NCBI RefSeq assembly: GCF_029690045.1
Contig: NZ_CP121464.1
Coordinates: forward strand, 5,952,001 to 6,016,000
DNA length: 64,000 bases
Direction: 5' to 3'
From: Janthinobacterium rivuli
GTDB taxonomy: Bacteria; Pseudomonadota; Gammaproteobacteria; Burkholderiales; Burkholderiaceae_D
Within the stretch, counting starts at the first letter, position 1, and each line of letters starts with the position of its first letter. Under the pieces are notes generated by a model, which made no database searches, had not been told where the DNA came from, and saw only the letters and a program-made list of their open reading frames with translations. Shown here one piece after another: positions 6,563 to 22,900 of this stretch. The position numbers were made by a program, and so were the translations under genes.

Positions 6563-8242
6563 TTATTCCACGCTCAAGCCCAGATCCGTCGCCACCTGCT
6601 TGCGCAACAGGTATTTCTGGATCTTGCCCGTCACCGTCATGGGGAATTCCTCGACGAAACGTACATAGCGGGGAATCTTGTAATACGCGATCTGTCCATC
6701 GCAAAAGGCGCGGATGTCATCGCTGGTCGCCTGCGTGCCCGGACGCAGGATAATGCAGGCGCACAACTCTTCGCCATACTTGGCATCGGGCACGCCCACG
6801 CATTGCACGTCGAGCACGCTCGGGTGGCGGTACAGGAATTCCTCGACTTCGCGCGGATAGATGTTTTCGCCGCCGCGTATCACCATGTCCTTGGAGCGGC
6901 CGACGATGCTGCAAAAGCCGTTGTCGTCGATGACGGCCAGGTCGCCCGTGTGCATCCAGCGCGCCGCGTCGATGGCCTCGGCCGTTTTTTCCGGATCGCC
7001 CCAGTAGCCCTGCATCACGGAATAGCCGCGCGTGAGCAATTCGCCCTTCTCGCCGCGCGGCACGATACGCCCTTCCGCATCGATGATTTTCACTTCCAGG
7101 TGCGGGTGGACACGGCCGATGGACGACACGCGCATTTCGCGCGGGTCCTCGATCGCCGTCTGGAAGCTGACGGGCGACGTTTCCGTCATGCCATACGCAA
7201 TCGTGATTTCCGCCATGTGCATCAATTCGATAACCCGCGTCATGACTTCCATCGGGCAGGGCGAGCCGGCCATGATGCCAGTGCGCAACTGGGACAGATC
7301 ATATTGCTTGAAGTCAGGATGGTCGAGGATGGCGATGAACATCGTCGGCACGCCGTGCAGCCCCGTGCAGCGTTCGGCCTGCACGGTTTCCAGCACGGCC
7401 TTCGGGTCGAAGCCCTCGCCAGGAAACACCATGGCCGCGCCATGCGTGACACAAGCCAGGTTGCCCAGCACCATGCCGAAGCAGTGGTACAAGGGCACGG
7501 GGATGCACAAGCGGTCCTGTTCGGTGAGGCGCATGGCTTCGCCGATGAAAAAACCGTTGTTCAGGATATTGTGGTGCGTCAAGGTGGCGCCTTTCGGCGC
7601 GCCCGTGGTGCCGGACGTGAACTGAATGTTGACGGCGTCGTCAAACTGCAAGCCAGCGCTGACTTCTTCCAGGCGCGCCAGGTCGGCGTCGGCAATGCCG
7701 TCCATCAGGGCGTCGAAGTTGTGCATGCCCGGCGTGGCGGCCGCACCCAGCCGGATGACGTGGCGCAATTGCGGCAGGCGCGGCGACTGCAGGGCGCCCG
7801 CGCGCGAACGGGCAATTTCCGGCACCACGTCCTGCACGATGGCCAGGTAATCGCTGGACTTGAAGCTGGGCGACAGGATCAGCGCGCTGCATTGCACCTT
7901 GTCGAGCACGTATTCGAGTTCCGAGCGCCGGTAGGCGGGATTGATGTTGACCATGATCAAGCCGGCTTTCGCCGTGGCAAACTGGGTCAGCACCCATTCG
8001 GCGCAGTTTTGCGACCAGATGCCGACCCGGTCGCCCGGCTGCAAGCCCAGTTTCAGCAAGCCGGCAGCCAGGCGGTGCACGCGCTGCTGAAACTCACGAT
8101 ACGTCCAGCGCACGTTCTGGTGCGCCACGATCAGGGCGTCGTGCTGGCCGTAGCGGGCGGCAATGCCGTCCAGGTAGGCACCTATCGTTTCGCCGATCAA
8201 CGGCGTCTCGTGGGCGCCGTGTACATAACTCATTGCTTGCAT
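6563..8242 (-). CDS. Acyl-CoA synthetase (AMP-binding, fatty-acyl-CoA ligase type)
   Basis: ANL-superfamily adenylating enzyme of 559 residues that activates a carboxylic acid with ATP and joins it to CoA. Visible motifs are the P-loop [10 protein letters not shown], the adenine-binding YGMTETSP, the hinge region TGDLAVID with [16 protein letters not shown], and the C-terminal catalytic Lys in [11 protein letters not shown]. The overall pattern is that of short- to medium-chain fatty-acyl-CoA ligases; the substrate cannot be fixed. The ATG at 8242 follows GGAGACAGC. It is divergent from polB with about 130 bases between. Confidence 0.85.
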
Positions 8243-8374
8243 GCTGTCTCCAGGGTGTATGGCGCGACGCGCTCTTGTTATCGTCTTCGATGCAGAAAAT
8301 TATAGCCGCAACCGCCCCCGCCCTGCGCAGCTTGCTGTAATGTGCAGGCCAGTACACCAGACACTCACGGCACC

Positions 8375-10732
8375 ATGACAGGCACCACGCAGCACCCGCT
8401 CGAACAGGGCTTCATCCTGACCCGCCACTGGCGCGACACGCGCGACGGCACGGAAGTCGATTTCTGGCTGGCAACGGATGCCGGGCCCCGCCACGTGCGC
8501 CTGCCCGTGCAAACGGCCGTCGCCTTCCTTCCCATGGAGCAACAGGAACAGGCGCAACAGTTGCTGCGCGGCGAGCGCCACGCAGAGCTGCGTCCCCTGT
8601 CGCTGTGCGATTTTCATCACCGCCCCGTGCTGGGGCTGTACTGCAAGCAATACCGGCATTTGCTGAAGCTGGAAAAGCAGCTGCGCGCGCACGGCGTCGA
8701 CGTCTACGAAGCCGACATCCGCCCGCCCGAGCGCTACCTGATGGAGCGTTTCATCACGGCACCGGTGACCTTCAGCGGAGAAACGGAAGTGCAGTTGAAA
8801 CCGGCGCCCGGCTATCGCCCCACATTGCAACTGGTGTCGCTCGATATCGAGACGACGGCGCATGGCGAGCTGTATTCGCTGGCCCTGGAAGGCTGCGGCC
8901 AGCGCCAGGTCTACATGCTGGGGCCGCCAAACGGCGGCGATTACGCCTTGGACTTCGACCTCGAATACTGCGACACGCGCGCGCAAATCCTCGAACGCCT
9001 GAACACATGGATGGAACGCCACGACCCTGACGCCATCATCGGCTGGAACCTGGTGCAGTTCGACTTGCGCGTGCTGCGCCAGCACGCCGAGCGCTACCAG
9101 ATACCGTTGAAACTGGGACGCGGCGGCGCCGTGATGGAATGGCGCGAACACGGCGGCAAGCAGGAACACTATTTTGCGGCCGCAGCGGGGCGCCTCATCA
9201 TCGACGGCATCGAAGCCTTGAAATCGGCGACGTGGAATTTTTCCTCGTTCAGCCTGGAAAACGTGGCGCAAACGCTCTTGGGCGAAGGCAAGTCCATCGA
9301 CAATCCCTACCAGCGCATGGCCGAGATCGACCGGCGTTTTCGCGAAGACAAACCGGCGCTGGCCCGCTACAACCTCAAGGATTGCGAGCTGGTCACGCGC
9401 ATCTTCGCCAAGACCGAGCTGCTGACGTTTTTGCTGGAACGGGCCAGCGTGACGGGCCTGGCGGCCGACCGCAGCGGCGGCTCCGTGGCCGCGTTCGAAC
9501 ACCTGTACTTGCCGCTGATGCACCGGCAGGGTTACGTGGCGCCCAACCTGGGCGATGTCTCCGGCGAAAACAGTCCGGGTGGCTTCGTCATGGATTCGCA
9601 GTCGGGCCTGTACGATTCCGTGCTCGTGCTCGACTACAAAAGCCTGTACCCGTCCATCATCCGCACCTTCCTGATCGACCCAGTCGGGCTTGTGGTGGGC
9701 ACCAGCGGCGATGAAGCCGATACCGTTCCCGGCTACCGGGGCGCGCAATTTTCGCGTGTGAAACATTGCCTGCCGGCCATCGTGGAACAGGTGTGGCAAG
9801 GCCGCGAGACGGCCAAGCGCGAGCGCAATGCACCGCTGTCGCAAGCGTTAAAAATCATCATGAACGCGTTTTATGGTGTGCTGGGTTCCAGCGGCTGCCG
9901 CTTTTTCGACCCGCGCCTGGCCTCGTCGATCACCCTGCGCGGCCACGACATCATGCACCGCACGCGAGAATTGATCACCGGGCAGGGTTATCAGGTGATT
10001 TATGGCGACACGGATTCCACGTTTGTGTGGCTGAAAACGGCGCATAGCGACGAAGCGGCGGGCAAGATCGGCCGCGCCCTGGTGGCGCATGTGAATGCCT
10101 GGTGGAATACCTGTCTGCGCGATGAATTCGGCCTGGACAATGCGCTGGAGCTGGAATTCGAGACGCATTACCGGCGTTTCCTGATGCCCACCATCCGCGG
10201 CTCGGAAGAAGGCAGCAAGAAGCGCTACGCGGGCCTGGTGGGCAAGCCGGACGGCAGCGAGGACATGGTCTACAAGGGCCTGGAAACCGTGCGCAGCGAC
10301 TGGACGCCGCTGGCGCAGCAATTCCAGCAGGATTTGTACCGGCGCATCTTCCAGCGCGCCGCCTACCAGGATTATGTGCGCGACTACGTGGCGCGCACCG
10401 TGCGCGGCGAATTCGACGCTTTATTGGTCTACCGCAAACGCCTGCGCCGTCCGCTCGACGACTACCAGCGCAACGTACCGCCCCATGTGCGCGCGGCGCG
10501 CACGGCCGACGCCTACAACCTGGCGCAGGGACGGCCACTGCAATACCAGAACGGCGGCTGGATCAGCTATGTCATCACGGTGGCGGGGCCGGAACCGCTG
10601 GAAACGCAGCGCTCGCCCATCGACTACCACCATTACCTGACGCGCCAGCTGCAACCGGTGGCCGACGCGATCCTGCCCTTCCTGGGCGACGATTTTTCGC
10701 GCCTCGTGTCGGGCCAGCAGGATTTGTTTTAG
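8375..10732 (+). CDS. polB: DNA polymerase II (family B)
   Basis: Family B polymerase with 3'-5' exonuclease, used in replication restart and lesion bypass in enterobacteria. The 785 residues match E. coli Pol II (783). The exonuclease motif SLDIETT, polymerase motif [11 protein letters not shown], motif [13 protein letters not shown] and motif C YGDTDST are all intact. The ATG at 8375 is chosen; a GTG at 8342 would add eleven residues. No LexA-type box was recognised upstream. It lies alone, divergent from the acyl-CoA ligase. Confidence 0.95.
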
Positions 10733-11005
10733 ATCAATTCTGCTTACCTGCGCGGCCAAGCTGAGGTAATATCGGCGCCTGCCGGGCTTATCTGACCCAG
10801 TCCACGGGCGCTGTGCGCCGCGGCAGCGTAAAATACGCCATGGCGAAAGAATAAGAGCTGTTCCAAAGAAGAAGATGCCGCTCCAGACGAGAATCGTTCG
10901 CAAGAAGATTGTCGCCACTGAAAGGGCGCATAATTTATCACTATGTTGAACCAGCAGGCTGTGCGGTATGCGCCTCCCCTGCTATTTTTTGAATGAATTG
11001 ACACC

Positions 11006-12322
11006 ATGACCGAGATCACGTCCTTAAGAGACATCCCGCAAAAAAATATCTTCCGCAAGGGCGACACCTTTGTGCTGTTCGGCGAGCTGTTCGGCCGCGG
11101 CTATGTGAATGGCTTGCTGGACGAAGCGCGCAAGGCGGGCATGAATATCGTCGGCATGACGGTCGGCCGCCGCGATGAAAACATGGCGCTGCGTCCGCTG
11201 AACGCGGAAGAGCTGGCCGAAGCGGAAGCCAACCTGGGCGGCCGCATCATCAATGTGCCGCTGATGGCCGGTTTCGACCTCGACGCGCCAGCCGGCGAAC
11301 CGACGCCGACGGCCCTGCTGGCCGACATGACCCTGAAAAGCTGGCAGGAAGACAAGCTGGACTGGGCGCAGATCGAACGCTGCCGCGAAGCCGGCATCGC
11401 CCGCTTCAGCGCTTCCGTGGCCAAAGCCATGGCCGAGCTGGACAGCCTGATTCCTGACGGCAGCAATGTGTATTTCGCCCACACCATGGCTGGCGGCATT
11501 CCAAAGGTCAAAGTCTTCCTGGCCATCGCCAACCGCATCTATAAAGGCCGCGGCGAGCGCTTCATGTCCTCGCGCGCCCTGCTCGACAGCGACCTGGGTA
11601 AATTGATCCTGATGAACTTCGACGAAGTCACGGCCAACACCCTGCAACACCTGATCGACGGCAGCGCCGCCATCCGCGCCCGCATCGAGCAAACGGGCGG
11701 CCAGGTGCGCTACAGCGCCTACGGCTACCACGGCACCGAGATCTTGATCGACGGCAAGTACCAGTGGCAAACCTACAGCAACTACACCCAGGGCCTGGCG
11801 AAGATGCGCCTGGAAAACGTGGCCAAGGCCGCGTGGGACAAAGGCATCAAGGCCACCGTCTTCAACTGCCCGGAAATCCGCACGAACTCGTCCGACATTT
11901 TCGTCGGCGTGGAACTGTCCCTGTTCCCCCTGCTCGACGCGCTGAAAAAAGAAGGCGGCGCGGCCTGGGCCGAAGAGCAATGGAAAATCTGCCAGGGCTT
12001 GCTGGAAGACGGCGTTGCGCTGCAAGACTTGCTCGACCGTATCGCCGCCTACAATGGCGACGCCACCAGCGTGCAATTCCGCAACTTCGCCGCCTGGCCG
12101 ATGGACAACACGCCAGAGCTGGCCGACGTCATGATCGGCACCTCGGACGACATCACCAAGCTGCACAAGGACCGCAAGGAACTGATCACCGACCACCTGA
12201 GCTCGCTGGTCCTGGAAGGCACGGGCCCGCTGATGTTCCACACCATGTCGGAACCGCCAGCACCGGTCGTCTGGCTGAACCACGACATCATCGCGCGTCT
12301 GCTGAACTCAGTGCATAACTGA
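11006..12322 (+). CDS. FabMG-like putative enoyl-ACP reductase / conserved protein
   Basis: Protein of 438 residues with no signal peptide. Strong-looking conserved blocks include GELFGRGYVNGL, TVGRRDENMALRPL, NVPLMAGFDLDAP, FAHTMAGGIPK and YNYTQG-like YSNYTQGLAKM. I associate this pattern from memory with proteins annotated as the FabMG enoyl-ACP reductase family, which would place it in the last step of each fatty-acid elongation cycle. The classical Rossmann GxxxGxG is not obvious, so the function is uncertain. Its own promoter is probably in the 273-base gap after polB. It is directly followed by tRNA-Leu. Confidence 0.5.
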   Translation: MTEITSLRDIPQKNIFRKGDTFVLFGELFGRGYVNGLLDEARKAGMNIVGMTVGRRDENMALRPLNAEELAEAEANLGGRIINVPLMAGFDLDAPAGEPTPTALLADMTLKSWQEDKLDWAQIERCREAGIARFSASVAKAMAELDSLIPDGSNVYFAHTMAGGIPKVKVFLAIANRIYKGRGERFMSSRALLDSDLGKLILMNFDEVTANTLQHLIDGSAAIRARIEQTGGQVRYSAYGYHGTEILIDGKYQWQTYSNYTQGLAKMRLENVAKAAWDKGIKATVFNCPEIRTNSSDIFVGVELSLFPLLDALKKEGGAAWAEEQWKICQGLLEDGVALQDLLDRIAAYNGDATSVQFRNFAAWPMDNTPELADVMIGTSDDITKLHKDRKELITDHLSSLVLEGTGPLMFHTMSEPPAPVVWLNHDIIARLLNSVHN

Positions 12323-12412: not shown

Positions 12413-12499
12413 GCCGGGATGGCGGAATAGGTAGACGCACGGGACTCAAAATCCCGCGCTGGAAACAGCGTGCCGGTTCGATTCCGGCTCCCGGCACCA
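12413..12499 (+). tRNA. tRNA-Leu(CAA)
   Basis: Acceptor GCCGGGA (12413-12419) pairs with TCCCGGC (12489-12495), followed by discriminator A and encoded CCA (12496-12499). The anticodon stem CGGGA/TCCCG (12440-12444, 12452-12456) encloses a loop with anticodon CAA at 12447-12449, reading UUG. A long variable arm (GCTGGAAACAGC) and a T-arm with GGTTCGATTCC are present, as expected of a class II tRNA. Confidence 0.97.
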
Positions 12500-12520
12500 C
12501 CAGACACGGTAATACACATA

Positions 12521-12555
12521 GAAAGCCACTCACCTCAGGGTCGAGTGGTTTTTTT
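12521..12555 (+). terminator. Intrinsic terminator after tRNA-Leu
   Basis: CCACTC (12526-12531) pairs with GAGTGG (12543-12548), with an A-run before and seven T after. Confidence 0.8.
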
Positions 12556-12868
12556 ATGTCGCCTGCGTGCCTGCACCGGCCATCCCTTCCTGGCGCACTC
12601 CCGCCCAGCAACTCCATCAACTTGCCCCTCCCCTCGGAAAACAGCGAATATCAGGCTGTCAAGAAAATATTTCGATCAAACAAAAATGTGTGACGGAAAA
12701 AATAATTAATCTAAGATCAATATGACATTTTTGCTTTTTAATAGGCATACTTGCGTCTTCAGGCAATCATTGGTTTACTTCTCGCGACTTCCACTCGCAC
12801 TACCACAATGTCTCCCGGAACCAGAGGCATTATTCGCCATACATGACCCGAACTGAAATCCGCTCATT
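12556..12868 (+). other. AT-rich intergenic region and probable cassette promoter
   Basis: About 310 bases without a gene. The right two thirds (about 12640-12780) are clearly richer in A and T than the flanks, as often seen at the edge of acquired DNA. The best promoter candidate is ATGACA (12722-12727), an 18-base spacer and CATACT (12746-12751), for the radical SAM gene at 12869. No integrase, transposon end or copy of the tRNA 3' end was seen. Confidence 0.4.
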
Positions 12869-13930
12869 ATGAATTCCCTATCTGAACTTGCATCCGCCAC
12901 GAACCACGACAACCTTGCATATTTTCGCGAACTCAATGCCCGCTTGGGCACGCTCAAGGCGGCTAACTACGATGTGGCGTCCAAATGCAATTTGCGCTGC
13001 GAGGGATGCCTTTTCTTCGAGGGCGAAGAAAACGAAGGTCACGAAGACAGCCGTTCGCTTGCCGAATGGGATGCCCTGTTTGCCGCCGATGCGGCGCGCG
13101 GCGTGACGCTGGCCTACATGGCGGGCGCGGAACCGAGCCTGGTGCCCGACAGGCTGCGGGCGGCCCAGAAATACATTCCGCACGGTATTGTGTTTACGAA
13201 TGGCACGATACGCTTGCCCGACGATATCTTTTACCGCATCCATATTTCATCCTGGGGCGTTGATGAAATCGGCAGTTCATTGCGTGCCGGCGACGTGCTG
13301 ACCAAGGCCATGAACAATTACCGCGACGACCCTCGGGCCGTCTGCGTGTTCACCATTACTTCCCTGAATATCAATCAGATCATGACCATGGCAAAGCTTG
13401 CCAACAGTCATGGCCTACCGCTCACCTTCAGCTACTTCAGCCCGACCACCCGCTATCTCGACAAGCTGGAAAACAAGGTGGATAACGACAAGGCATATTT
13501 CCGCATCAGTAGCGCCACGCAGAACCTGGCCCTGACGCCAGCCGATTTTGCCCATGCACGTGCGGAAATCGTGCGCGCCATGCTGGCCTATCCGGACACG
13601 GTGCAATATTCCCTGCATTATGACGACTGGGTCACGGGCGACAAGCTCTACGACATCGACCCCGTCACCAAAATCGCCAAGAACTGCGGTTTTCGCATCA
13701 CCAAACAAGTGCATGTGCATGTCGACCATCAACCGGGCAAGGGCAAGTGCTGCAGTTCGAATATCGATTGCAGCAATTGCCGCGCTTATGCAATGGGACA
13801 ATCGACCTATCTGTCACGCATCCGCCAAGCCGTCAGAAACCCGGAAGAGCTGGCCAAATGGCTGGAAGTACGGGAAATCTGGGCCCATCTGTTTTTGAAC
13901 GCCGACCAATCGGCCACGGTACGCCTGTAA
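12869..13930 (+). CDS. Radical SAM protein with C-terminal extra cysteine cluster
   Basis: Protein of 353 residues. The radical SAM motif C-x3-C-x2-C is at Cys40, Cys44 and Cys47 (ASKCNLRCEGC), which should hold a 4Fe-4S cluster and S-adenosylmethionine. The C-terminal part has Cys273, Cys294, Cys295, Cys301 and Cys304 (KCCSSNIDCSNC), suggesting a SPASM-like or other auxiliary iron-sulfur site. The substrate is unknown. It is the first gene of a tight three-gene unit with an MBOAT acyltransferase and an SGNH-like protein; the next start lies four bases after its stop codon. No good Shine-Dalgarno sequence precedes the ATG. Confidence 0.8.
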   Translation: MNSLSELASATNHDNLAYFRELNARLGTLKAANYDVASKCNLRCEGCLFFEGEENEGHEDSRSLAEWDALFAADAARGVTLAYMAGAEPSLVPDRLRAAQKYIPHGIVFTNGTIRLPDDIFYRIHISSWGVDEIGSSLRAGDVLTKAMNNYRDDPRAVCVFTITSLNINQIMTMAKLANSHGLPLTFSYFSPTTRYLDKLENKVDNDKAYFRISSATQNLALTPADFAHARAEIVRAMLAYPDTVQYSLHYDDWVTGDKLYDIDPVTKIAKNCGFRITKQVHVHVDHQPGKGKCCSSNIDCSNCRAYAMGQSTYLSRIRQAVRNPEELAKWLEVREIWAHLFLNADQSATVRL

Positions 13931-13934
13931 TGCG

Positions 13935-15365
13935 ATGAGTTTTACCTCGTACTGGTTTACCCTGGCCTTCCTGCCTGTCTCCGCGTATGCCTACCGGCGC
14001 CTGATCTCAAAAAACCAGCTTCATCTGCTGCTGCCGCTGCTGATTTCCCTGGTTTTTTATTATCTCAACGATGCGCACAACCTGTTGCTGTTCTGTGCAT
14101 CCATGGGCGCCAACTGGGTGCTCGCCGGCGTCATCGCTAAAAACCGCGAGAAGACCAGCTACCTGGCGCTGGCCATCGCGGGGAACTTATGCTTTCTCGC
14201 CTTATATAAGTACGCGAAGTTCTTTGTCGTGCCCGGGACCGCAATTCCGGCTCTCCCGCTGGGTATCTCGTATTTTACATTTACGCAAATCGCCTTCCTG
14301 GTCGATACGGCGCGTGGGCAAGCCCGCAGCACCAATCCGCTCGAATACGCGCTCTTCGTGGCCTGGTTTCCCCACCTGCCTGCCGGGCCCCTGCTATCGC
14401 ACAAGGACATGCTGCCGCAATTCATGGCCGCGCCGGGCGCGACCTCGGCCCTGCGCCCTGCACCGCGCGACTACGCTGTCGGCCTGACGCTATTCGCCAT
14501 GGGGCTGTTCAAAAAGTCCTGCGTTTCTCCCCTCTTCCTCCATGCGCAAAGCGACGTCTTCCTGCGCGCGGGGCAAGGCGACCCCATCGGCCTCATCGAG
14601 ACTTGGATCGCTTGCCTGGGCTTCCTGTTTGAAACGTATTACGACTTTTGCGGCTATTCGGAAATGGCCATGGGCATCAGCAGGATGTTCGGCATTCACC
14701 TGCCCGTCAATTTCCATGCACCGTTCAAGTCTTCCAGCCCAGTCGAGTTCTGGACCCGCTGGCATGTAACATTGGGCGCCTTCATGCGCGACTACCTGTA
14801 CCGCCCGCTGACCAAAAAACGCCAGGTGTGGCGTCATTATGCGGCCCTGTTCGTGGTCATGATGGCCGTCGCCATCTGGCACGGCGCCACGGTTCCGTTG
14901 CTCATCTTTGGCATTTATCAAGGGCTGCTGGTCACCGGGAACCATGCATTGCGGCGCTGGAATATCGTCTCGCGCAAGGGCGGCTGGCTCCAGCACTGGG
15001 CCGGCAGGGCGTTGACGCTGGCGGCCATCGGATTTTCCGTCAGCCTGTGGGCCACGCGGGACTGGCATCAAGCCAGCAGCATCATGCTCGGTTTACTAGG
15101 TGCCGGAAACGGTTCCGTTTGGCCAATTAGTTTCCTCAGCCCAATCCTTATCCTCGCCGCCATTATCTTCAACTGGTTTGCCCCTTCGTTGATTGACCTG
15201 ATGACCAAGGAATTACCCGCATGGAGCGTGCAACTGAAAAAATCCACCACAAGCACGCTGGCTTGGAGACCAAGCCTGGCGTGGGCAGCGGCGGTGGCCA
15301 TTGCACTTTGCCTTGCCCTTATCAATTTGTCAGGCCTGAAGGAATTCAAATATGCGGGCTTTTAA
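13935..15365 (+). CDS. MBOAT family O-acyltransferase (AlgI/DltB-like)
   Basis: Polytopic membrane protein of 476 residues. MBOAT hallmarks are present: YYDFCGYSEMAMG, the block FWTRWHVTLGAFMRDYLYRPL-like segment (about residues 273-293), and the invariant catalytic His in IWHGAT (His316). AlgI and DltB relatives pass acyl groups across the inner membrane to a partner SGNH-type or DltD-type protein that acylates an envelope polymer. Here the partner is probably the next gene, whose start overlaps this stop by 14 bases. The acceptor is unknown, and no polysaccharide biosynthesis genes are adjacent. Confidence 0.88.
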   Translation: MSFTSYWFTLAFLPVSAYAYRRLISKNQLHLLLPLLISLVFYYLNDAHNLLLFCASMGANWVLAGVIAKNREKTSYLALAIAGNLCFLALYKYAKFFVVPGTAIPALPLGISYFTFTQIAFLVDTARGQARSTNPLEYALFVAWFPHLPAGPLLSHKDMLPQFMAAPGATSALRPAPRDYAVGLTLFAMGLFKKSCVSPLFLHAQSDVFLRAGQGDPIGLIETWIACLGFLFETYYDFCGYSEMAMGISRMFGIHLPVNFHAPFKSSSPVEFWTRWHVTLGAFMRDYLYRPLTKKRQVWRHYAALFVVMMAVAIWHGATVPLLIFGIYQGLLVTGNHALRRWNIVSRKGGWLQHWAGRALTLAAIGFSVSLWATRDWHQASSIMLGLLGAGNGSVWPISFLSPILILAAIIFNWFAPSLIDLMTKELPAWSVQLKKSTTSTLAWRPSLAWAAAVAIALCLALINLSGLKEFKYAGF

Positions 15366-16401
15366 TCATGAAATTCCCGTCAGGCACTTTTTCGCCTGCA
15401 TTTTTTTCGTTGCCAGCGGGTTGACACTACTCCTTGCAGGATTCATTTTCATGATGGATCCTTATGCCATTTGGCGACAGCAGATGGACGACAAGCTCAT
15501 TGCGATCAGGCCGGAGATCTCCGCCGCCAGTCAGCCAGGCGCGGCCATCTTGCGCAGCCGGCTGCACACCCCTGACGTGCTGATTCTCGGCTCTTCGAGA
15601 GTCAGGCGCGGATTCAACGAGGCATTCGCCTCTCACTTATACGGAGGTAAAGTCCAGGTGGCGGGTCTCGATGCACTGCCACTATCGAGCGCCAAGGAGC
15701 TGATTTTTACCATCAGCCAGCAAACACATATTAAAAAATTCTATTTGGAAATTAATTTCCTGACTTCGAATGCTTGCAACGCAAAAAATGACAATATGAC
15801 GAGGTATAAACTCGCATCCCCGCTACAATACTTTTCGCCCAAGGATGCCCTCCTGCAAAGCTACACAACCCTGAAAATCAATCTGCTTCCACGCCGTTCC
15901 TTCGATGCTTACTTTGATGCACAAGGACGCTACCATGATGACCCTAGCAAGGGGGCGACGCGTGCCGGAAGAATGGAAACATATGAATCACGCTACAACC
16001 GTATGTTTCAGATGGTGACCAGCCCTTGTGAACGCAACGTAGAAAATGCTGCCGATATCAAGGACCTGTCGGATATCTTCAGGCTGGCGCAAGCCAGACA
16101 AACCGAGGTCATTTTGCTGGCTTTACCTGTCAGCCCCCGATGGCAAATTCGTATGCAGGAGGGGGGGTTATCGCCACAAGCTGCAAAATGGAAAAAGGAC
16201 ATGACCTCGGTCGCATCGCAATTCCACGTAACTGTGCTCGATTATGAAGAACGTGGCGATTTGAGTCCCCTTGCTGAAAACAGCAACGACGCCATGCCGA
16301 CGTTTTGGGATGAAACGCATTTCTCCAACCGTTTAGGCGATCACATATTGAACAACATGCGAGACACTGGCCATTTTTCCAGCATCTCCCCTATCCAGTG
16401 A
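15352..16401 (+). CDS. Membrane-anchored SGNH-like protein, probable partner of MBOAT acyltransferase
   Basis: Protein of 349 residues with one N-terminal membrane segment (about residues 12-35), so the rest should be periplasmic. LILGSSRVRRGFN (Ser81 or Ser82) resembles the first SGNH block and WDETHF (Asp320, His323) resembles the DxxH block, which together would give a Ser-His-Asp site. This layout is that of AlgJ/AlgX- and DltD-like partners of MBOAT proteins. It overlaps the MBOAT gene by 14 bases, which implies translational coupling. Codon use is visibly more A/T-rich than in neighbouring genes, hinting at transfer. No T-rich terminator follows. Confidence 0.65.
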   Translation: MRAFNHEIPVRHFFACIFFVASGLTLLLAGFIFMMDPYAIWRQQMDDKLIAIRPEISAASQPGAAILRSRLHTPDVLILGSSRVRRGFNEAFASHLYGGKVQVAGLDALPLSSAKELIFTISQQTHIKKFYLEINFLTSNACNAKNDNMTRYKLASPLQYFSPKDALLQSYTTLKINLLPRRSFDAYFDAQGRYHDDPSKGATRAGRMETYESRYNRMFQMVTSPCERNVENAADIKDLSDIFRLAQARQTEVILLALPVSPRWQIRMQEGGLSPQAAKWKKDMTSVASQFHVTVLDYEERGDLSPLAENSNDAMPTFWDETHFSNRLGDHILNNMRDTGHFSSISPIQ

Positions 16402-16429
16402 TGACGCCGGGTACGCACGTAGCCTCTCC

Positions 16430-16533
16430 AGCCAGCCTGAACGCACGTAATTGCGCTTGCGCCCGCCAGGCATGCCGTCGTAGTGCTCTACGCCTTGCCA
16501 GCCCACGTCAAAGCGCAAGGCGGCGGCGCCCAA
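16430..16533 (-). pseudogene. Possible gene remnant between cassette and Imm10-like gene
   Basis: On the minus strand this stretch reads like part of a real protein (ALRFDVGWQGVEHYDGMP, then GGRKRNYVRSGWLE), but there is no plausible start and the frame then runs antisense into the SGNH gene. It may be the scar of a gene interrupted when the cassette arrived. I do not recognise the parent family. The rest of the 208-base gap (16402-16609) shows nothing else. Confidence 0.2.
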
Positions 16534-16609
16534 TCATGGGAACCGGGCAGCAAGCCAGGAAGCAGCGCTTGATCCAGCTTTATGCGCTAGGCCGAAAGCG
16601 GCGCGCAAA

Positions 16610-17002
16610 TCAACGCTCCTCGCGATAATAATCGCAGCCTTCGAACGTGGTGCGCAGCGCCTGCTGCAGCTGGGCGTAGCGCTCGGGCGTCAAGTTGAAG
16701 CGCACGTCGATCTGGCCGTCGTCATCCATCTGCATGGCGGCCTCGGCATCCATCTGCACGGACAAACGGTTCGGGTGCAGGATGACGGCGTGCATGTGGC
16801 CGTACCACGCAAATTCCTGGCCGCAGTATTCGATGTACGGTTCGTCCATGCCCATGGCCACGTCCTGCTCGTCATACTCGTCGGCGCGCTGCAGCATCAG
16901 GTAGACGGGCTCGCCTTTGCCGGCTGGCGCGGCCAGGGTGGTGATCAGGGCGTCGTCTTCATGAATGACGGACAACTCGGTGGCGGTAAATCCTGCGGAC
17001 AT
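16610..17002 (-). CDS. Imm10-like immunity protein (orphan)
   Basis: Acidic protein of 130 residues. The pattern FTATELSVIHEDD, then PVYLMLQRADEYDEQDV, then EPYIEYCGQEFAWYGHM matches my memory of the Imm10 family, which protects against toxins of polymorphic toxin systems. No toxin gene or secretion gene is next to it, so it would be an orphan immunity gene or an unrelated member of the fold. It is divergent from the GNAT gene and sits at the right edge of the accessory cassette. The family call is from pattern memory only. Confidence 0.55.
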   Translation of the reverse strand: MSAGFTATELSVIHEDDALITTLAAPAGKGEPVYLMLQRADEYDEQDVAMGMDEPYIEYCGQEFAWYGHMHAVILHPNRLSVQMDAEAAMQMDDDGQIDVRFNLTPERYAQLQQALRTTFEGCDYYREER

Positions 17003-17129
17003 GGCGTGCTTTCAACAAATAGATGGATGACGCCACCATAGCGCAAAAGCGGCGCGGACGACATAGCGCGCGGCGAATAAAGCGTGCCCCTATAATGGTC
17101 ATTCCATCCATATTGCACAGGAGACCGCC

Positions 17130-17546
17130 TTGACCGCAGCATCGCCCTACACCACCCGCCTGGCCATCCCCTCCATCGCCACCTACCAGCACCTGCGCGT
17201 GGCCGCCGGCATGAGCGCGAAAAGCACGGCGGCGGCGGCCAAGGGCTTGCCGAATTCCCTGTTTGCCGTGCAAATCCTGCATGGCGACGAGGTGGTGGGG
17301 ATCGGACGCATCATCGGCGACGGCGGCTGCTTCTTCCAGGTCACCGATATCGCCGTGCTGCCGGCCCATCAGGGCAAGGGCCTGGGCAAGCGCATCATGC
17401 GCGAGATCATGCAATTCATCGAGACGGAGGTGCCGCAAAGCGCGTATGTCAGCCTGATCGCCGATGGCCAGGCGCAAGAACTGTATGCGCAATTCGGTTT
17501 CAAGCACACGGCGCCCGCCTCCGTCGGCATGGCGCTGGTACGCTAG
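17130..17546 (+). CDS. GNAT family N-acetyltransferase
   Basis: Small acetyl-CoA-dependent acyltransferase of 138 residues. The acetyl-CoA-binding loop is QGKGLGKRIM, preceded by the beta strand VTDIAVLPAH and followed by the C-terminal LYAQFGF segment typical of GNATs. It begins at TTG 17130, supported by CAGGAGAC just upstream. The substrate is unknown. A TATAAT at 17091-17096 may be its -10 box, though no good -35 pairs with it. Its stop overlaps the next gene by one base. Confidence 0.85.
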   Translation: MTAASPYTTRLAIPSIATYQHLRVAAGMSAKSTAAAAKGLPNSLFAVQILHGDEVVGIGRIIGDGGCFFQVTDIAVLPAHQGKGLGKRIMREIMQFIETEVPQSAYVSLIADGQAQELYAQFGFKHTAPASVGMALVR

Positions 17547-18292
17547 TGCCGGCCTGGCTGGCTGCCAGCATGGCGCTGGCGCTGCTGTTGAGCGCCGCCG
17601 CCTGGCGCGCCGAGCGCCTGCTGCAGCGGCACGGGCGCACGACGCGCTGGCTGTGGCTGGCGGCCATCGCCGCGTCCGCCATCTTGCCGCTGGCGTGGCT
17701 GCCCGGCGTGCTGGCGGCCATGCCGGCGGAACAGGCGCAGCTGAAGCTGGGCTGGTTTGTCTTATCCAGCGGCATGCTGTTGCTGTTGGCGCTGCGCAGC
17801 GTCTGGCTGCTGTCGCACCAGCGGCGCTGGCAGAAAACATCGTTGCTGGGTACGCCCGTGTACTTGAGCGGCGGCATCGGTCCCTGCGTGGCGGGGCTGC
17901 TGCGGCCGCGCATCGTGATGCCCGTCTGGCTGCAACTGATTTCGCCGCAGCAACAGGCGCTGCTGCTGGCGCACGCGCAATGCCGGCTGGCCGCGCGCGA
18001 TCCGCTGCTGCTGGCCCTGGCGTACGCCTTGATTATTCTCATGCCGTGGAATCTGCCCCTGTGGTGGCAGTTGCACCGGCTGCGCTTTGCCATCGAAGTC
18101 GATTGCGACGCACGCATGCTGGCGCACGGCCACGCGCCGCGCGACTATGCCATCGTCCTGCGCCAGCATGGCCAGTACTATTCGGGCCTGACGGGCGCCT
18201 CGCCCATCGTGCTGAACGACCCGCTGGCGCTGCGGCGCCGGCGGCAAATCATGGCCAGATTTACGCGGAACCGGGCGGCGAACTTGCTATAG
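17546..18292 (+). CDS. Degenerate M56 (BlaR1-like) membrane peptidase, probably inactive
   Basis: Membrane protein of 248 residues with the M56/BlaR1 layout: N-terminal hydrophobic helices, GPCVAGLLRPRIVMP (the usual block before the active site), then LAHAQCRLAARDP. Active members have HELxHxxRRD here. In this protein His143 remains, but Glu is Ala144 and the second His is Arg147, while Arg151-Asp152 is kept. The zinc site is therefore broken. It starts at GTG overlapping the GNAT stop, so the two are probably co-translated. BlaI and a sensor domain are absent. Confidence 0.65.
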   Translation: MPAWLAASMALALLLSAAAWRAERLLQRHGRTTRWLWLAAIAASAILPLAWLPGVLAAMPAEQAQLKLGWFVLSSGMLLLLALRSVWLLSHQRRWQKTSLLGTPVYLSGGIGPCVAGLLRPRIVMPVWLQLISPQQQALLLAHAQCRLAARDPLLLALAYALIILMPWNLPLWWQLHRLRFAIEVDCDARMLAHGHAPRDYAIVLRQHGQYYSGLTGASPIVLNDPLALRRRRQIMARFTRNRAANLL

Positions 18293-18355
18293 TAGCGGCA
18301 ACGCCGCACGGCGCGCCCGCGATCCCGGCTCCCCCTTAGAAATCAGAGAGATACC

Positions 18356-18856
18356 ATGCTTTACCTGCTTGCCATCGTGATCGTCATCGCCCTGCTGTAC
18401 TACGTCTTCAGCGGCCGCACGCCCGTCAAACCGCTGCACAAGCCGCTCGTCTCGGTGCGCCAGTACGTGCCGGCGATTCCTGCGGGCGCCCCCGCGCATC
18501 ACTGGAGCGACGAGGGACGCTTTGCGTCGGAAGTGGAAAACGAAGCGATGTACCAGAGCGCCATCGCCAAACTGGCCGGCGAGCACGGTCCCGGCAATGC
18601 GGAAGAGAAATGCCTGGCCCTGCTCGTCTGCGACGATGCCAACCCGTTCCAGGACAAGGCCATCGCCGTCTTCATCGATGGCCTGCTGGTCGGCTACCTG
18701 TCGCACAACGACGCGCTGCGCCTGCGCCGCAACCTGGGCCGCATGGACCTGGTGGGCCAACTGACCTCGTGCGACGCCGTCATCCGCGGCGGCGGACTGT
18801 GGAATGGCAAGCGCCTGTCATATGCCGTGTGGCTCGATTTGCAGCCGTACAACTGA
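18356..18856 (+). CDS. Membrane-anchored protein with possible HIRAN-like domain
   Basis: Protein of 166 residues with one N-terminal transmembrane helix (residues 1-19) and a soluble part. The C-terminal half contains AIAVFIDGLLVGYLSHNDA followed by SCDAVIRGG, reminiscent of HIRAN-type domains in which a VGYLP-like strand is typical. Function is unknown. The first ATG is used; AGAGAGA precedes it. Confidence 0.6.
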   Translation: MLYLLAIVIVIALLYYVFSGRTPVKPLHKPLVSVRQYVPAIPAGAPAHHWSDEGRFASEVENEAMYQSAIAKLAGEHGPGNAEEKCLALLVCDDANPFQDKAIAVFIDGLLVGYLSHNDALRLRRNLGRMDLVGQLTSCDAVIRGGGLWNGKRLSYAVWLDLQPYN

Positions 18857-18862
18857 TAAGCA

Positions 18863-19663
18863 CTACACCGCGCGCGCCTGCCTGATGGCGCGCGTGGCGA
18901 TAAAGCTGGGCAAGTATTTTTCAATTTCAAAGCGCGGGTGCGGATGCATTCCCTCGTGATACCCCGCCAGCACGAAGCCCGCCGCCAGCTGGCCGCCGAT
19001 CTGGCTGTCCAGCCCGTGACCGAAGATCAGCGCTTCGCCCTTCTCCATGCGCGATGCCAGCGCATCGGCGTCCATATCCTCCAGATCCGAATACGGCAGC
19101 ACGAAGCGGGGCCGTATCAAGCCCTGCTGTGCCCATTGCGGGTCGCGGTCGCCGATGAACACGGCCGGATTGAAAAAACTGCTCAACAGCACGCCGCCGT
19201 CGGCCAGCACGCGCGCGCATTCGCGCCATACGGGGCCGATGTCGGGCACGTACTGGTTCGATACAGGATGGACGATGACATCGAAACTGGCATCGGCAAA
19301 GCGGCTCAGGTCGCGCATGTCGCCCTGCACGGTGGCCAGCTGCAAGCCGTCACGTTCAGCCACCATGCGGTCTTTCGCCAGTTGCTGCCCGGACAAATCG
19401 AACACGGTCACGTGCGCGCCGGCGGCCGCCAGCACGGGCGCCTGCTGCCCGCCGGCGCCGGCCAGGCACAGGATACGCTTGCCATGCACCTCGCCCAGCC
19501 AGCCGGCCGGCAAGGAGCCGGGCGTCAAATGAATTTGCCACTGCCCGGCACGCGCCGCGGCGATGGTGGCGCTGTCGACAGGCTGCGACCATGGGCTGTT
19601 CTGTGCAGCCTGGGCATCCCAGGCTTGCTGATTATGCGGCAAGAAGTTGTTACTTAAAGGCAT
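18863..19663 (-). CDS. Class I SAM-dependent methyltransferase
   Basis: Cytoplasmic enzyme of 266 residues. Motif I is ILCLAGAGGQQAPVLAAAG, followed by VTVFDLSGQQL (acidic end of strand 2), GDMRDLSRF and FDVIVHPVSNQYV. These are the SAM-binding elements of a Rossmann-like methyltransferase. The substrate is unknown. The ATG at 19663 is preferred because GAAAGGA lies six to seven bases upstream; ATG 19669 sits inside that ribosome site. It converges with the HIRAN-like gene, six bases away. Confidence 0.85.
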   Translation of the reverse strand: MPLSNNFLPHNQQAWDAQAAQNSPWSQPVDSATIAAARAGQWQIHLTPGSLPAGWLGEVHGKRILCLAGAGGQQAPVLAAAGAHVTVFDLSGQQLAKDRMVAERDGLQLATVQGDMRDLSRFADASFDVIVHPVSNQYVPDIGPVWRECARVLADGGVLLSSFFNPAVFIGDRDPQWAQQGLIRPRFVLPYSDLEDMDADALASRMEKGEALIFGHGLDSQIGGQLAAGFVLAGYHEGMHPHPRFEIEKYLPSFIATRAIRQARAV

Positions 19664-19958
19664 AGTCATCCTTTCAGAAAAAACAGGACGCGAATGTAGC
19701 ATGACGCATGGCAAGGCGTCGCACCTTGCAAAAAAACCACACAATTCCTGATGGCAATTTCCTCGTCAGCACCGCCATTCCACGGGCACGACAAGGTGAG
19801 CGCCCCGCTTATCCCGCTTGGGAATGGCTTGCACGACAGGGAAAATAATTACAATTAAGATATTTGTTTCCGGAAATCTGGTAAGGTAATCCGCATCGAT
19901 CACCCGCCGTGGCGGCAGGCGCACACGCCAGCGCCACACGCGTCACCTGCTTCCTACG

Positions 19959-22900
19959 ATGATACCTGCCAGCGTCCAGCACCTGTTCCACCTTCCCGCC
20001 GATCCGGCCCAGTTGCACCATGGCCAGCATGCGCCGGGCCTCGTGCTGCTGTCGCTCGTGATCGCCATTTTCACGTCGTGGATGGCTTTCCAGATGACGG
20101 CGTACAGCCGCGCGCAGGCAAGCATCAGCCGCCGCTTGCACTTGCTGTGCCTGCTGGCCGGCAGCCTGGCGCTGGGCTGCGGCGTGTGGGCCATGCATTT
20201 CATCGGCATGCTGGCCTTCGAGCTGGGCACCAGCGTCGCCTACGATCCGGGCCTGACCCTGCTGTCCATCGTGCCCAGCGTGGCGGCCTCGTTCGTGGCC
20301 CTGGCCACCATCAGCCGGCGCGCCGTCACGGCGCCGCTGCTGCTCGGGAGCGGCCTGCTGGTGGGCCTGGGCATCGGCGCCATGCATTACACGGGCATGC
20401 ACGCCATGCGCATGGGCCTGTCGCTGCGCTACGATCCGCTGCTGTTTGCGCTGTCGCTTGCCGTTGCCGTGGCGCTGGCCACCCTGGCCCTGTGGATACG
20501 TTTCGGCCTGCGCGGCTGGAGCAGCCGCATAGTCGCAGCGCAGCGCACGCTGATCAGCGCCTGCGTCATGGGGTGCGCGATTACCGGCATGCACTACATG
20601 GGCATGCAGGCGGCCCGCTTCGTGGGGACGATTCCCCCTGGCAATGATGCCGATGCCAACCGGCCCATGCTGGTGATCAGCGTGACCCTGCTGACCATCG
20701 CCCTGACCATCCTGGTCGCCTCGGCCGTGGGCATCTTGCGCTACCGCGAGCTGTTTCGCCACCTGAACCAGAGCGAACACTGGACCCGTTCCCTGCTGAC
20801 GAGCACGGTTGACGGCGTCATCACCATCGACCGCCACGGCAACATCGTCGACTTCAACGGCGCCGCCGAGCGCATCCTCGGCTGGCGCTCGGCGGAAATT
20901 GTCGGCCGCCATGTCAGCGTGCTGGTCAGCGACGTGCGCCAGTCGGAACAGCACGGCCTGCTGCACTACCTGCGCACGGGCGAAGGCGACGCGGTCCATA
21001 CCAGCGAGGAAATCGTCTACCTGCGCAAGGATGGCGCCCCGGTCGCCGTGCAGCGCTCGATGGCCAGCGCGCGCCTGGCCGACCAGGATTTATATGTGCT
21101 GTTCATTACGGACATCAGCGAAAGGCGCGCCATGCTGGCCGCCCTGCGCGAAAGCGAGCAGCAGTTGCGCTCGCTGATCGGCAATATTCCCGGCATCGCC
21201 TTTCGCTGCACCACGGCGGAAAACCAGCCCATGCTGTTCATCAGCGATGGCGTGGAAGCCGTCACCGGCTATCCGCCCGCCGATTTTCTCGGCGCGGCGC
21301 CGCGCCGCAGCATCACGGGACTGATCGCCAGCGAAGAGCGCGCCTACGTCATCGACGTCTTCAACCGCAGCGTCGCCAGCGGCGAGCCCTACCTGCTCGA
21401 ATACCGCTTGCTGCATGCCGACGGCACGGCGCGCTGGCTGTGGGAGCGGGGCACCGTCGTGCACGATGCGGCCGGCGCCGTGCGCTGGGTCGACGGCGTC
21501 ATCCTCGACATCAGCGAACGCCGGCAAATGGAGGAAGACTTGCGCATGGCCAAGGAAAAAGCGGAGCTGGCGGCCGCCACGCGGGCCAGCTTTGTCGCCA
21601 ACATGAGCCATGAAATCCGCACGCCGATGAATTCCATACTCGGTTTCACGGATGTGCTGCTCGACTCGCCGCTGGCGCCGGAGCAGCGGCGCCACCTCGA
21701 CACCGTGCGCCAGTCCGGCCGCTCGCTGTTGCGCCTGCTCAACGAAGTGCTCGACACGGCCAAACTGGACAAGGGAGCCGTGGCGCTGGAATTGCGCGAC
21801 TACAGCCTGCTGGCGCTGGTCGATGAACTGGCGTCCACGTATGGCATCCACGCGCGCGCCAAAGGCTTGCGCATGGAGGTGCAGTACGACCCGCAACTGC
21901 CGGCCGTGCTGCATGGCGACGAATTGCGCATGCGGCAAGTGCTGGGCAACCTGCTCGACAACGCCATCAAGTTCACGCCCGGCGGCGGCGTCAGCCTGAC
22001 GGCGCGCCTCAAGGATGGCCAGCTGCACCTGCTGGTGCAGGACAGCGGCATCGGCATCCCCGCGGAACGGCGCGACGCCATTTTTGATCCGTTCGTGCAG
22101 GCCGACGCCTCGACCACGCGGCGCTTTGGCGGCACGGGCCTGGGCACCACCATCAGCCGGCAGCTGGTGACGCTGATGCAGGGGCGCATCTGGGCCGACG
22201 CCGCCTTGCCGCACGGCAGCGTGTTCCACGTCATGCTGCCCTTGTTGCCGGCACGCCAGGCGGCGCTGCCCGCCAGCGAACGCCGCAGCGTGCGCCTACC
22301 GCCCCTGCGCGTGCTGGCGGCCGACGACGTGCCGCAAAACCTGGAGCTGCTGAGCTTGCTATTGGGCAAGCGCGGCCACACGGTGATCACGGCCGGCGAT
22401 GGCGCGCAAGCCCTGCAACTGGCGCAGCAGGACGACTTCGACGTGCTGCTGCTGGACTTGCAAATGCCGCACATGGATGGCCTCGCCGCCACGCAAGCCA
22501 TCCGCGCCGCCGCCCTGCGCGATGGCCGCCCGCGCGTGCCCGTGATCGCCATGACGGCCAGCGTGCTCGATGCGCACCGCAAGGCGGCGCGCGCGGCCGG
22601 CATGGACGGTTTCGCAACAAAACCCGTCGAATGGCAGGCGCTGTCGCAGGAAATCGCCCGCGTGCTGGGCCTGGCGGCGGACCCGGCCGACGCCAGCCAC
22701 GCGCCGGCGCCCGCTGGCGGACGGGTGCTGCACCATGCGGGCGCCCTGCAGCGCTGGGCCGGCAACGACGGCGCCTACCGCGCGGCGCTGGCCCGTTTCG
22801 GAATCGAGCATCCACGTCTGCCGCCGGCCCTGCTGGCTGCCATCGAGGCGCGCGAGCATGCAACGCTCTTGCCTCAGAGCCACCAACTGCGCGGCGTGGC

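What the first reader, a model, noticed from the sequence alone, without database searches (positions are those of the whole stretch)
12869..16401. Three-gene cassette: radical SAM enzyme, MBOAT acyltransferase and SGNH-like partner
Seen: three tightly packed genes (four-base gap, then a 14-base overlap), a radical SAM CxxxCxxC motif with extra C-terminal cysteines, an MBOAT His in WHGAT, and a membrane-anchored protein with GSSR and DxxH blocks. Known: AlgI with AlgJ/AlgX, and DltB with DltD, transfer acyl groups across the membrane to envelope polymers. Inference: the unit makes or modifies a molecule by radical chemistry and then acylates it, or an envelope polymer, outside the cytoplasm. 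No alginate, cellulose or teichoic-acid gene is adjacent, so this would be a self-contained acylation system not matching a named one I know.
Basis: partly seen in the sequence, partly recalled or inferred. Interest (0 to 1): 0.78.

Follow-up and report, generated by a model that had tools for sequence, protein, structure and literature searches.

The report
Radical-SAM enzyme with acylation relay
A three-gene unit in a Janthinobacterium-like bacterium pairs an unclassified radical-chemistry enzyme with a known type of two-protein machine that carries an acyl group across the inner membrane, and relatives of that enzyme elsewhere often sit beside other, unrelated acyl-handling enzymes, so it probably makes or modifies something that gets acylated.

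Summary
The three genes are as described: a radical SAM (rSAM) enzyme with a likely twitch-type C-terminus, an MBOAT, and a membrane-anchored SGNH protein. The MBOAT-SGNH half is a known kind: catalytic His, the C-terminal acyl-shuttle motif FxYxxF (FKYAGF), and an SGNH partner with Ser82, Asp320, His323. The rSAM has no family model of its own in Pfam or NCBIfam (206 database hits). Close copies of all three genes occur in the same 6 of 40 genomes of the genus; those examined lie in one tRNA-Leu hotspot. Elsewhere the exact trio is rare (1 of 75 non-Janthinobacterium loci), but MBOAT with SGNH lies near the rSAM in 11 of 75. Of the other 64, 47 (plus 5 weak calls) carry another acyl-handling module: lipid-A-type acyltransferase, TPR-alpha/beta hydrolase, GNAT, HlyC or ketosynthase. 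None had two of the kinds I looked for. Within the genus the rSAM is constrained, while the SGNH gene diverges fast and shows signs of exchange. Best reading: the rSAM makes or modifies the molecule that is acylated, and MBOAT-SGNH acylates it, or an envelope acceptor, outside the cytoplasm. The substrate is unknown. I found no paper on the arrangement, in open-access full text only.

The parts
12413..12499 (+). tRNA-Leu (caa); left edge of the hotspot that holds the cassette
   Evidence: ARAGORN; in 15 of 18 fetched cassette-free loci of the genus the same tRNA end is followed by other DNA (0.1-8.1 kb) and then the flank that starts at window ~16602; of the other 3, one (L132) has a shorter right flank and two (L128, L138) none within 10 kb
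12869..13930 (+). radical SAM enzyme, 353 aa, likely twitch-type C-terminus, unnamed family
12986..13009 (+). CxxxCxxC motif CNLRCEGC (C40, C44, C47)
   Evidence: invariant in 59 of 59 aligned sequences, window included
13685..13780 (+). C273, C294, C301, C304: probable ligands of one auxiliary Fe-S cluster
   Evidence: invariant in 59 of 59 aligned sequences, window included; cluster binding is inference
13935..15365 (+). MBOAT acyltransferase, 476 aa
   Evidence: Pfam MBOAT 8e-19; NCBIfam DltB 149 bits, below its cut-off 375; PDB DltB 8.9e-23
14877..14885 (+). WHG motif with the conserved His (His316) of MBOATs
   Evidence: WHG found in 15 of 16 rSAM-linked MBOATs, not in L078
15345..15362 (+). 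C-terminal FKYAGF = acyl-shuttle motif FxYxxF (Tyr473)
   Evidence: motif and role from PMC12148441 (passages seen)
15352..16401 (+). membrane-anchored SGNH-type acyltransferase partner, 349 aa
15379..15453 (+). predicted N-terminal membrane helix, residues 10-34
   Evidence: AF2 secondary structure and hydrophobic sequence, judged by eye
15589..15597 (+). GSS (G80-S82), Ser82 probable nucleophile
   Evidence: G80 and S82 in 12 of 12 diverse rSAM-linked SGNH proteins, window included
16309..16320 (+). DxxH (D320, H323), rest of the catalytic triad
   Evidence: D320 and H323 in 12 of 12 diverse rSAM-linked SGNH proteins, window included

Best explanation
The cassette is a dedicated two-stage modification unit. 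Stage 2 works like PatA/PatB: the MBOAT (His316) loads an acyl group from a cytoplasmic thioester onto Tyr473 in its own C-terminal FKYAGF tail; the tail hands it to Ser82 of the membrane-anchored SGNH protein (with Asp320 and His323), which transfers it to an acceptor outside the cytoplasm. Stage 1 is the rSAM: it cleaves SAM at its CxxxCxxC cluster, makes a radical on a small molecule or a glycan or lipid unit, probably finishes the reaction with an auxiliary Fe-S cluster held by C273, C294, C301 and C304, and so builds or alters the molecule that is then acylated. The acyl module is exchangeable between lineages; the rSAM is the constant part. Shown: the genes, motifs, pairing, all-or-none inheritance in the genus, and different acyl-handling modules beside the rSAM in different lineages. 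Inferred: the relay chemistry (by homology), the order rSAM then acylation, and the nature of the substrate.
For: C-terminal FxYxxF and the MBOAT His are present; 13 of 16 rSAM-linked MBOATs end in exact FxYxxF and 3 of 16 in FxYxxY, with the mechanism from PMC12148441 (passages). MBOAT and SGNH co-occur in 16 of 16 loci that have either. Close copies of all three genes are in the same 6 of 40 genomes of the genus. Two of the nearest MBOATs outside the genus (P0158, P0159) have the same longest-contig lengths as two of the nearest rSAMs (P0007, P0008): 5,054,837 and 5,505 bases, so the same contigs by inference. 64 of 81 rSAM rows, plus 5 weakly called ones, have one acyl-handling module within 3.3 kb and none has two of the kinds modelled. 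On the rSAM tree the MBOAT label needs 5 changes, at least 3 forced by well-supported branches.
Against: No substrate is identified. Only 1 of 75 non-Janthinobacterium loci has the same gene order. The TPR-alpha/beta hydrolases (18 rows) need not be acyltransferases. The GNAT calls rest on sub-threshold Pfam hits. 12 of 81 rows have no recognised acyl module. MBOAT-SGNH works in the periplasm but GNAT, HlyC and lipid-A-type enzymes in the cytoplasm (recalled), so one common acceptor is not obvious. SGNH alleles vary while the rSAM does not, which fits a variable acceptor better than an rSAM-made one. In the near/far control ketosynthases appear in 2 of 121 far ORFs, so that module is not exclusive to the rSAM's side.
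Confidence: 0.42

Rival explanations
1. The rSAM makes the acyl group, not the acceptor: it produces or rearranges an unusual acyl thioester (or its precursor), which the MBOAT moves across the membrane and the SGNH puts on a surface polymer that differs between strains.
For: The rSAM is the constant part beside acyl-handling enzymes of several unrelated folds. In Deltaproteobacteria/Myxococcota two rSAMs sit near ketosynthases and, in 6 loci, a small protein that is an acyl carrier protein in the 2 scanned. P450, TauD, PhyH and Asp-hydroxylase-type oxygenases lie beside a number of relatives. The SGNH gene shows signs of exchange between strains while the rSAM is held, as expected if acceptors vary and the acyl group does not.
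Against: No ligase, CoA- or ACP-loading gene in the Janthinobacterium trio. Carbamoyl- and sulfotransferases in related loci look like decoration of a core molecule. Best fold neighbours act on peptides, nucleotides or nucleotide-linked sugars (their substrates partly recalled).
Confidence: 0.25
2. An ordinary O-acetylation pair acting on a surface glycan, with the rSAM an independent neighbour that travels with it.
For: MBOATs are common here: the same genome has two others at 39-41% identity, and 38 of 40 genomes of the genus have an MBOAT match. The tRNA hotspot collects unrelated cargo.
Against: Four-base gap and 14-base overlap; same six genomes; MBOAT-SGNH pairs stand beside this rSAM family in several separate branches of its tree; two near MBOATs outside the genus share contig lengths with near rSAMs.
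Confidence: 0.17
3. A RiPP pathway: the rSAM matures a ribosomal peptide which is then acylated.
For: Closest solved relative by sequence and fold is the sactipeptide enzyme SkfB. One neighbouring P450 scores 120 bits to the RiPP P450 ApyO, cut-off 525.
Against: The rSAM core starts near residue 30, about 77 residues earlier than in SkfB, leaving no room for SkfB's N-terminal RiPP recognition element (PMC6231123 passages). DNA between about 12560 and 12859 gives no blastn match to the five other cassettes, so no conserved precursor there. In a small-ORF screen the 25 clusters printed held an acyl carrier protein and no peptide family that I recognised.
Confidence: 0.08
4. A viperin-like antiviral enzyme with an envelope-modifying pair (a defence cassette in a hotspot).
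For: Weak hits to prokaryotic viperin: PADLOC pVip 21.8 bits, NCBIfam 20 bits of 180; viperins among the fold matches. One other cargo of the hotspot is a NACHT protein.
Against: The pVip match covers only residues 32-113. The other hotspot cargo scanned is mostly metabolic or regulatory. Neighbours across the family look like tailoring enzymes.
Confidence: 0.05

Closest known systems
PatA/PatB and other MBOAT-SGNH acyltransferase pairs (AlgI/AlgJ/AlgX and others)
   Same: MBOAT with the conserved His and C-terminal FxYxxF; membrane-anchored SGNH partner with Ser/Asp/His; genes adjacent
   Different: An rSAM gene is part of the unit; no polymer-synthesis gene was recognised beside it; the SGNH sequence is too diverged for Pfam or NCBIfam assignment
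Dlt system (DltABCD plus DltX)
   Same: The MBOAT's only NCBIfam hit is DltB (149 bits); the SGNH protein's only one is DltD (14 bits)
   Different: Both far below cut-offs (375 and 150); the shuttle motif is on the MBOAT itself rather than on DltX; no DltA or DltC in the trio
Twitch/SPASM rSAM enzymes: SkfB, anSME, BlsE, MoaA
   Different: 13-16% identity; no RiPP recognition element; linked to acyl-handling enzymes
swf operon of sponge symbionts (PKS/FAS, reductase-sulphotransferase, rSAM; PMC3908369, passages seen)
   Same: An rSAM beside acyl-chain and sulfate enzymes, role unknown
   Different: SwfC is a 585-aa rSAM with a B12-binding domain that groups with methyltransferases

Membership tests
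MBOAT-SGNH acyltransferase pair | MBOAT domain with the conserved His | tested here: met
   Pfam MBOAT 8e-19; WHG with His316
MBOAT-SGNH acyltransferase pair | C-terminal acyl-shuttle hexapeptide FxYxxF | tested here: met
   FKYAGF is the last six residues; definition from PMC12148441 (passages)
MBOAT-SGNH acyltransferase pair | adjacent SGNH-fold partner with Ser/Asp/His and membrane anchor | tested here: met
   the model is of moderate confidence (pLDDT 71) and the anchor is judged from a predicted helix
MBOAT-SGNH acyltransferase pair | transfer of an acyl group to an extracytoplasmic acceptor | not testable with these tools
   needs biochemistry
Dlt D-alanylation system | DltB and DltD equivalog scores | tested here: not met
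   149 of 375 bits and 14 of 150 bits
Dlt D-alanylation system | DltA ligase and DltC carrier in the locus | tested here: inconclusive
   none in the three-gene unit; only three flanking genes were scanned (FabMG, Imm10, GNAT) and the rest of the genome was not searched for them
radical SAM superfamily | CxxxCxxC and rSAM fold | tested here: met
twitch-domain rSAM | C-terminal region binding one auxiliary Fe-S cluster | tested here: inconclusive
   four invariant Cys and fold overlay on SkfB and MoaA; cluster not shown
RiPP-maturing rSAM (sactisynthase type) | N-terminal RiPP recognition element | tested here: not met
   profile residue 36 aligns to SkfB residue 113 and the first core strand is at 31-37; SkfB has an N-terminal RRE
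RiPP-maturing rSAM (sactisynthase type) | adjacent precursor peptide | tested here: inconclusive
   no conserved upstream DNA, no peptide family recognised among the 25 clusters printed; a distant precursor is not excluded
prokaryotic viperin | full-length pVip profile match | tested here: not met
   21.8 bits over residues 32-113 only; viperin_w_prok 20 of 180 bits

The most novel reading that the evidence does not exclude
The cassette is the minimal member of an undescribed class of biosynthetic loci: one rSAM family as the constant core, with interchangeable acyl-handling modules of unrelated folds (MBOAT-SGNH, lipid-A-type acyltransferase, alpha/beta hydrolase, GNAT, HlyC, ketosynthase plus carrier protein) and optional P450, carbamoyl- and sulfotransferases. 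Together they make acylated molecules of unknown structure. In Janthinobacterium the acyl step faces outward and its SGNH gene is swapped between strains to change the acceptor.
Probability: 0.4. Interest if true: 0.78.

Novelty: new variant of a known kind. Interest (0 to 1): 0.58.

Why it matters
It links an uncharacterised rSAM family, found in Alpha-, Beta-, Gamma- and Deltaproteobacteria and a few other phyla (record titles), to acyl transfer. A three-gene cassette absent from most genomes of its genus gives a clean knockout and comparison system, and the known acyl-Tyr and acyl-Ser intermediates offer a way to catch the unknown acyl group or product by mass spectrometry. It also suggests that MBOAT-SGNH relays may serve specialised metabolites as well as major envelope polymers.

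Tried and rejected
Plasmid search with the rSAM: 15 records, best 34% identity, no close copy. Viral contigs: 11 weak partial matches of 133 candidate stretches, not followed. In 399 genomes sampled from the order only 2 matched at E 1e-20, the window's own included; in 294 of the family 10 matched at E 0.001, 5 close (89-100% identity, the window's own included) and 5 at 29-34%, not followed. In the genus one further genome (G035) has a 33% match, and 8 genomes have only weak SGNH matches of 20-33 bits, not counted as copies. Defence reading: only a partial pVip match; the MBOAT and SGNH had no PADLOC hit at E 0.01. Dlt equivalog scores, the RRE and viperin tested and not met as listed. The swf operon has a different rSAM type. 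Promoter and terminator scans gave no more than shuffles (4 vs mean 3.0; 4 vs mean 5.0).

Paper searches, all ten: 'radical SAM' with MBOAT and DltD, with MBOAT, and with 'membrane-bound O-acyltransferase' gave 0 papers; with carbamoyltransferase, P450 and acyltransferase terms 0; with 'O-acyltransferase' 10, unrelated by title and start of abstract; with 'acyltransferase', 'fatty acyl' and 'acyl carrier protein' 10 found, 9 listed, of which I saw passages of PMC3908369 only; MBOAT/SGNH/AlgI/DltB background 15 listed, of which I saw passages of PMC12148441 only; 'radical SAM'/SPASM/twitch 2,371 found, 12 listed, of which I saw passages of PMC6231123 only; 'Janthinobacterium', 'O-antigen' and 'acyltransferase' 0. 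Only open-access full text is held, so absence from print is not shown.

Weak points in my own counts: the 80 loci are the best 80 of 181 confirmed, found with one motif pattern. A1 holds 58 of the 120 listed homologues plus the window; A2 holds 23 of the 25 listed SGNH proteins plus the window. One early gene-map script printed 'none' for L016 and L020 because of an overlap filter; later scripts handled them. 'Module within 3.3 kb' and 'no two kinds' concern only the profiles that I built, plus hand labels for seven rows (L025 HlyC; L036, L039, L046, L048, L051 and L063 GNAT). Pfam did not support L063, so I count it as no module although the tree output has GNAT 11 and none 11. The five c43 proteins are GNAT only by hits of E 0.026 and 0.1 in two of the four scanned, none in the other two; the five c46 proteins by 3.6e-5 (just under the cut-off), 0.014 and 0.068 in the three scanned. 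The near/far Pfam control used 121 of 146 near neighbours (25 left out because over 1100 aa or by the residue cap, so loci after L078 are missing) and 121 of 121 sampled far ORFs; ORFs were picked by length, so some are probably not genes; the tool lists only the top 25 families. The tree is of the quick kind, and L090 sits on a very long branch of unsure place, so one of the five MBOAT changes may be false. P0157 (56%, 2,831-base contig of unnamed origin) is a nearer MBOAT than P0158, and its context is unknown.

Points mended on the second check against the calls: DltA/DltC membership moved to inconclusive; 'nearest' MBOATs and rSAMs outside the genus changed to 'two of the nearest'; identity range of the rSAM fold matches corrected; the ketosynthase result of the far control added. 
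Full report
What is there. Three + strand genes at 12869-13930, 13935-15365 and 15352-16401 encode a 353 aa rSAM enzyme, a 476 aa MBOAT and a 349 aa SGNH-type protein. The two 2-kb bins that hold the unit are 55-56% G+C, against 61-67% in the bins from 8001 to 12000 and from 16001 to 22000. The unit follows a tRNA-Leu at 12413-12499. The genome is one 6.3 Mb contig. The closest named relatives of the three proteins are Janthinobacterium.

Co-inheritance in the genus. Of 40 genomes, close SGNH orthologues (54% identity or more) are in 6 and MBOAT orthologues (81% or more) in the same 6. The rSAM (89% or more) is in the same 6: 5 of 37 genus genomes, and of the three genomes added later G063 positive, G061 and G062 negative. 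All five cassette loci compared have the tRNA-Leu just upstream. In 15 of 18 fetched cassette-free loci the tRNA end is followed by other cargo of 0.1-8.1 kb and then the same right flank from about 16602. Ten cargo proteins from six of these loci were scanned: they include a NACHT protein, an acyltransferase-3, MesX and a methionine-synthase-like protein, a histidine kinase, an M20 peptidase and others, so this is a mixed hotspot.

Selection. In six cassettes, 15 pairs, dN/dS is 0.048-0.074 for the rSAM, 0.078-0.159 for the MBOAT, and 0.174-0.325 for the SGNH in the 11 of 15 pairs where dS was not saturated. Synonymous divergence differs between genes of one pair: L011/L012 has dS 0.18, 0.28 and 0.81 for rSAM, MBOAT and SGNH; window/L013 has 0.47, 0.11 and 0.09. 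The cassette therefore looks like a mosaic in which SGNH alleles are exchanged. I read this as a changing acceptor or exposure at the surface; that is inference.

Beyond the genus. The best 80 of 181 confirmed loci were kept. MBOAT plus SGNH lie within 4 kb of the rSAM in 16 of 80, MBOAT within 3 kb in all 16, and MBOAT and SGNH always together: Janthinobacterium (5); Brevundimonas, Erythrobacter and Blastomonas (6, order P450-MBOAT-SGNH-rSAM); two with P450 and a NodU-like carbamoyltransferase (L040, L078); two Pseudomonas with the MBOAT on the opposite strand (L024, L027); and one uncultured Rhodobacteraceae (L090) with the window's order and only 32% rSAM identity. Two of the nearest MBOATs outside Janthinobacterium, at 50 and 48%, have longest contigs of exactly the same lengths as two of the nearest rSAMs, one of them only 5,505 bases long.

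Other loci carry other acyl-handling modules within 3.3 kb. Of 81 tree rows (window included): lipid-A-type acyltransferase domain after TPRs 17 (Pfam Lip_A_acyltrans 8e-5 in L072 and 0.12 in L080, VexE 2e-10 in L043); TPR-alpha/beta hydrolase 18 (Hydrolase_4 3e-5 in L018, none in L022; up to 3e-18 among near neighbours); MBOAT 17; ketosynthase 6 (KAS II models in L082; acyl carrier protein confirmed in L082 and L083); GNAT-like 5 (best 3.6e-5) plus 5 weaker; HlyC 1 (1.7e-18); none 12. No row had two of these kinds. The MBOAT label needs 5 changes, at least 3 forced by starred branches; the L090 branch is long and its place unsure. All labels together need 19 changes against a shuffled mean of 50.9, so they follow the tree but change repeatedly. 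As a control, of 121 immediate neighbours 12 are P450, 13 have TPR_19 and 5 Hydrolase_4, while none of these is among the 25 families listed for 121 distant ORFs from the same contigs; against the pattern, ketosynthase domains are in 2 of the 121 distant ORFs.

Reading. The constant element is the rSAM; what changes is the way an acyl group is handled. The simplest reading is that the rSAM makes or alters the molecule that is acylated, and that Janthinobacterium uses an outward-facing relay for it. The alternative, that the rSAM makes the acyl group itself, fits the carrier-protein loci and the exchanged SGNH genes and cannot be excluded.

Noticed in passing
window 12500-16602: tRNA-Leu(caa) hotspot: in 15 of 18 fetched cassette-free loci of the genus different DNA lies between the tRNA and an Imm10-family gene
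   Followed up: partly
window 16610-17002 (-): Imm10-family immunity protein gene (Pfam 1.2e-14) at the right edge of the hotspot; no partner toxin looked for
   Followed up: no
L121:1271-4099: NACHT/STAND ATPase as the largest cargo gene of the same hotspot in another genome; that cargo is 46% G+C
   Followed up: no
L082-L089: Deltaproteobacteria/Myxococcota loci with two tandem rSAMs, several with a small acyl-carrier-like protein and ketosynthases
   Followed up: partly
L036, L039, L048 (Pseudomonas): rSAM followed by a weak GNAT-like protein, a sulfotransferase and a large autotransporter
   Followed up: no
L040, L043, L044, L047, L064, L074, L076, L078: rSAM with P450 and NodU-like carbamoyltransferase, together with a TPR-lipid-A-type acyltransferase or MBOAT-SGNH: looks like an unnamed natural-product locus family
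   Followed up: partly
window 11006-12322: FabMG-type enoyl-ACP reductase gene just upstream of the tRNA, also found in cassette-free genomes, so probably not part of the cassette
   Followed up: yes
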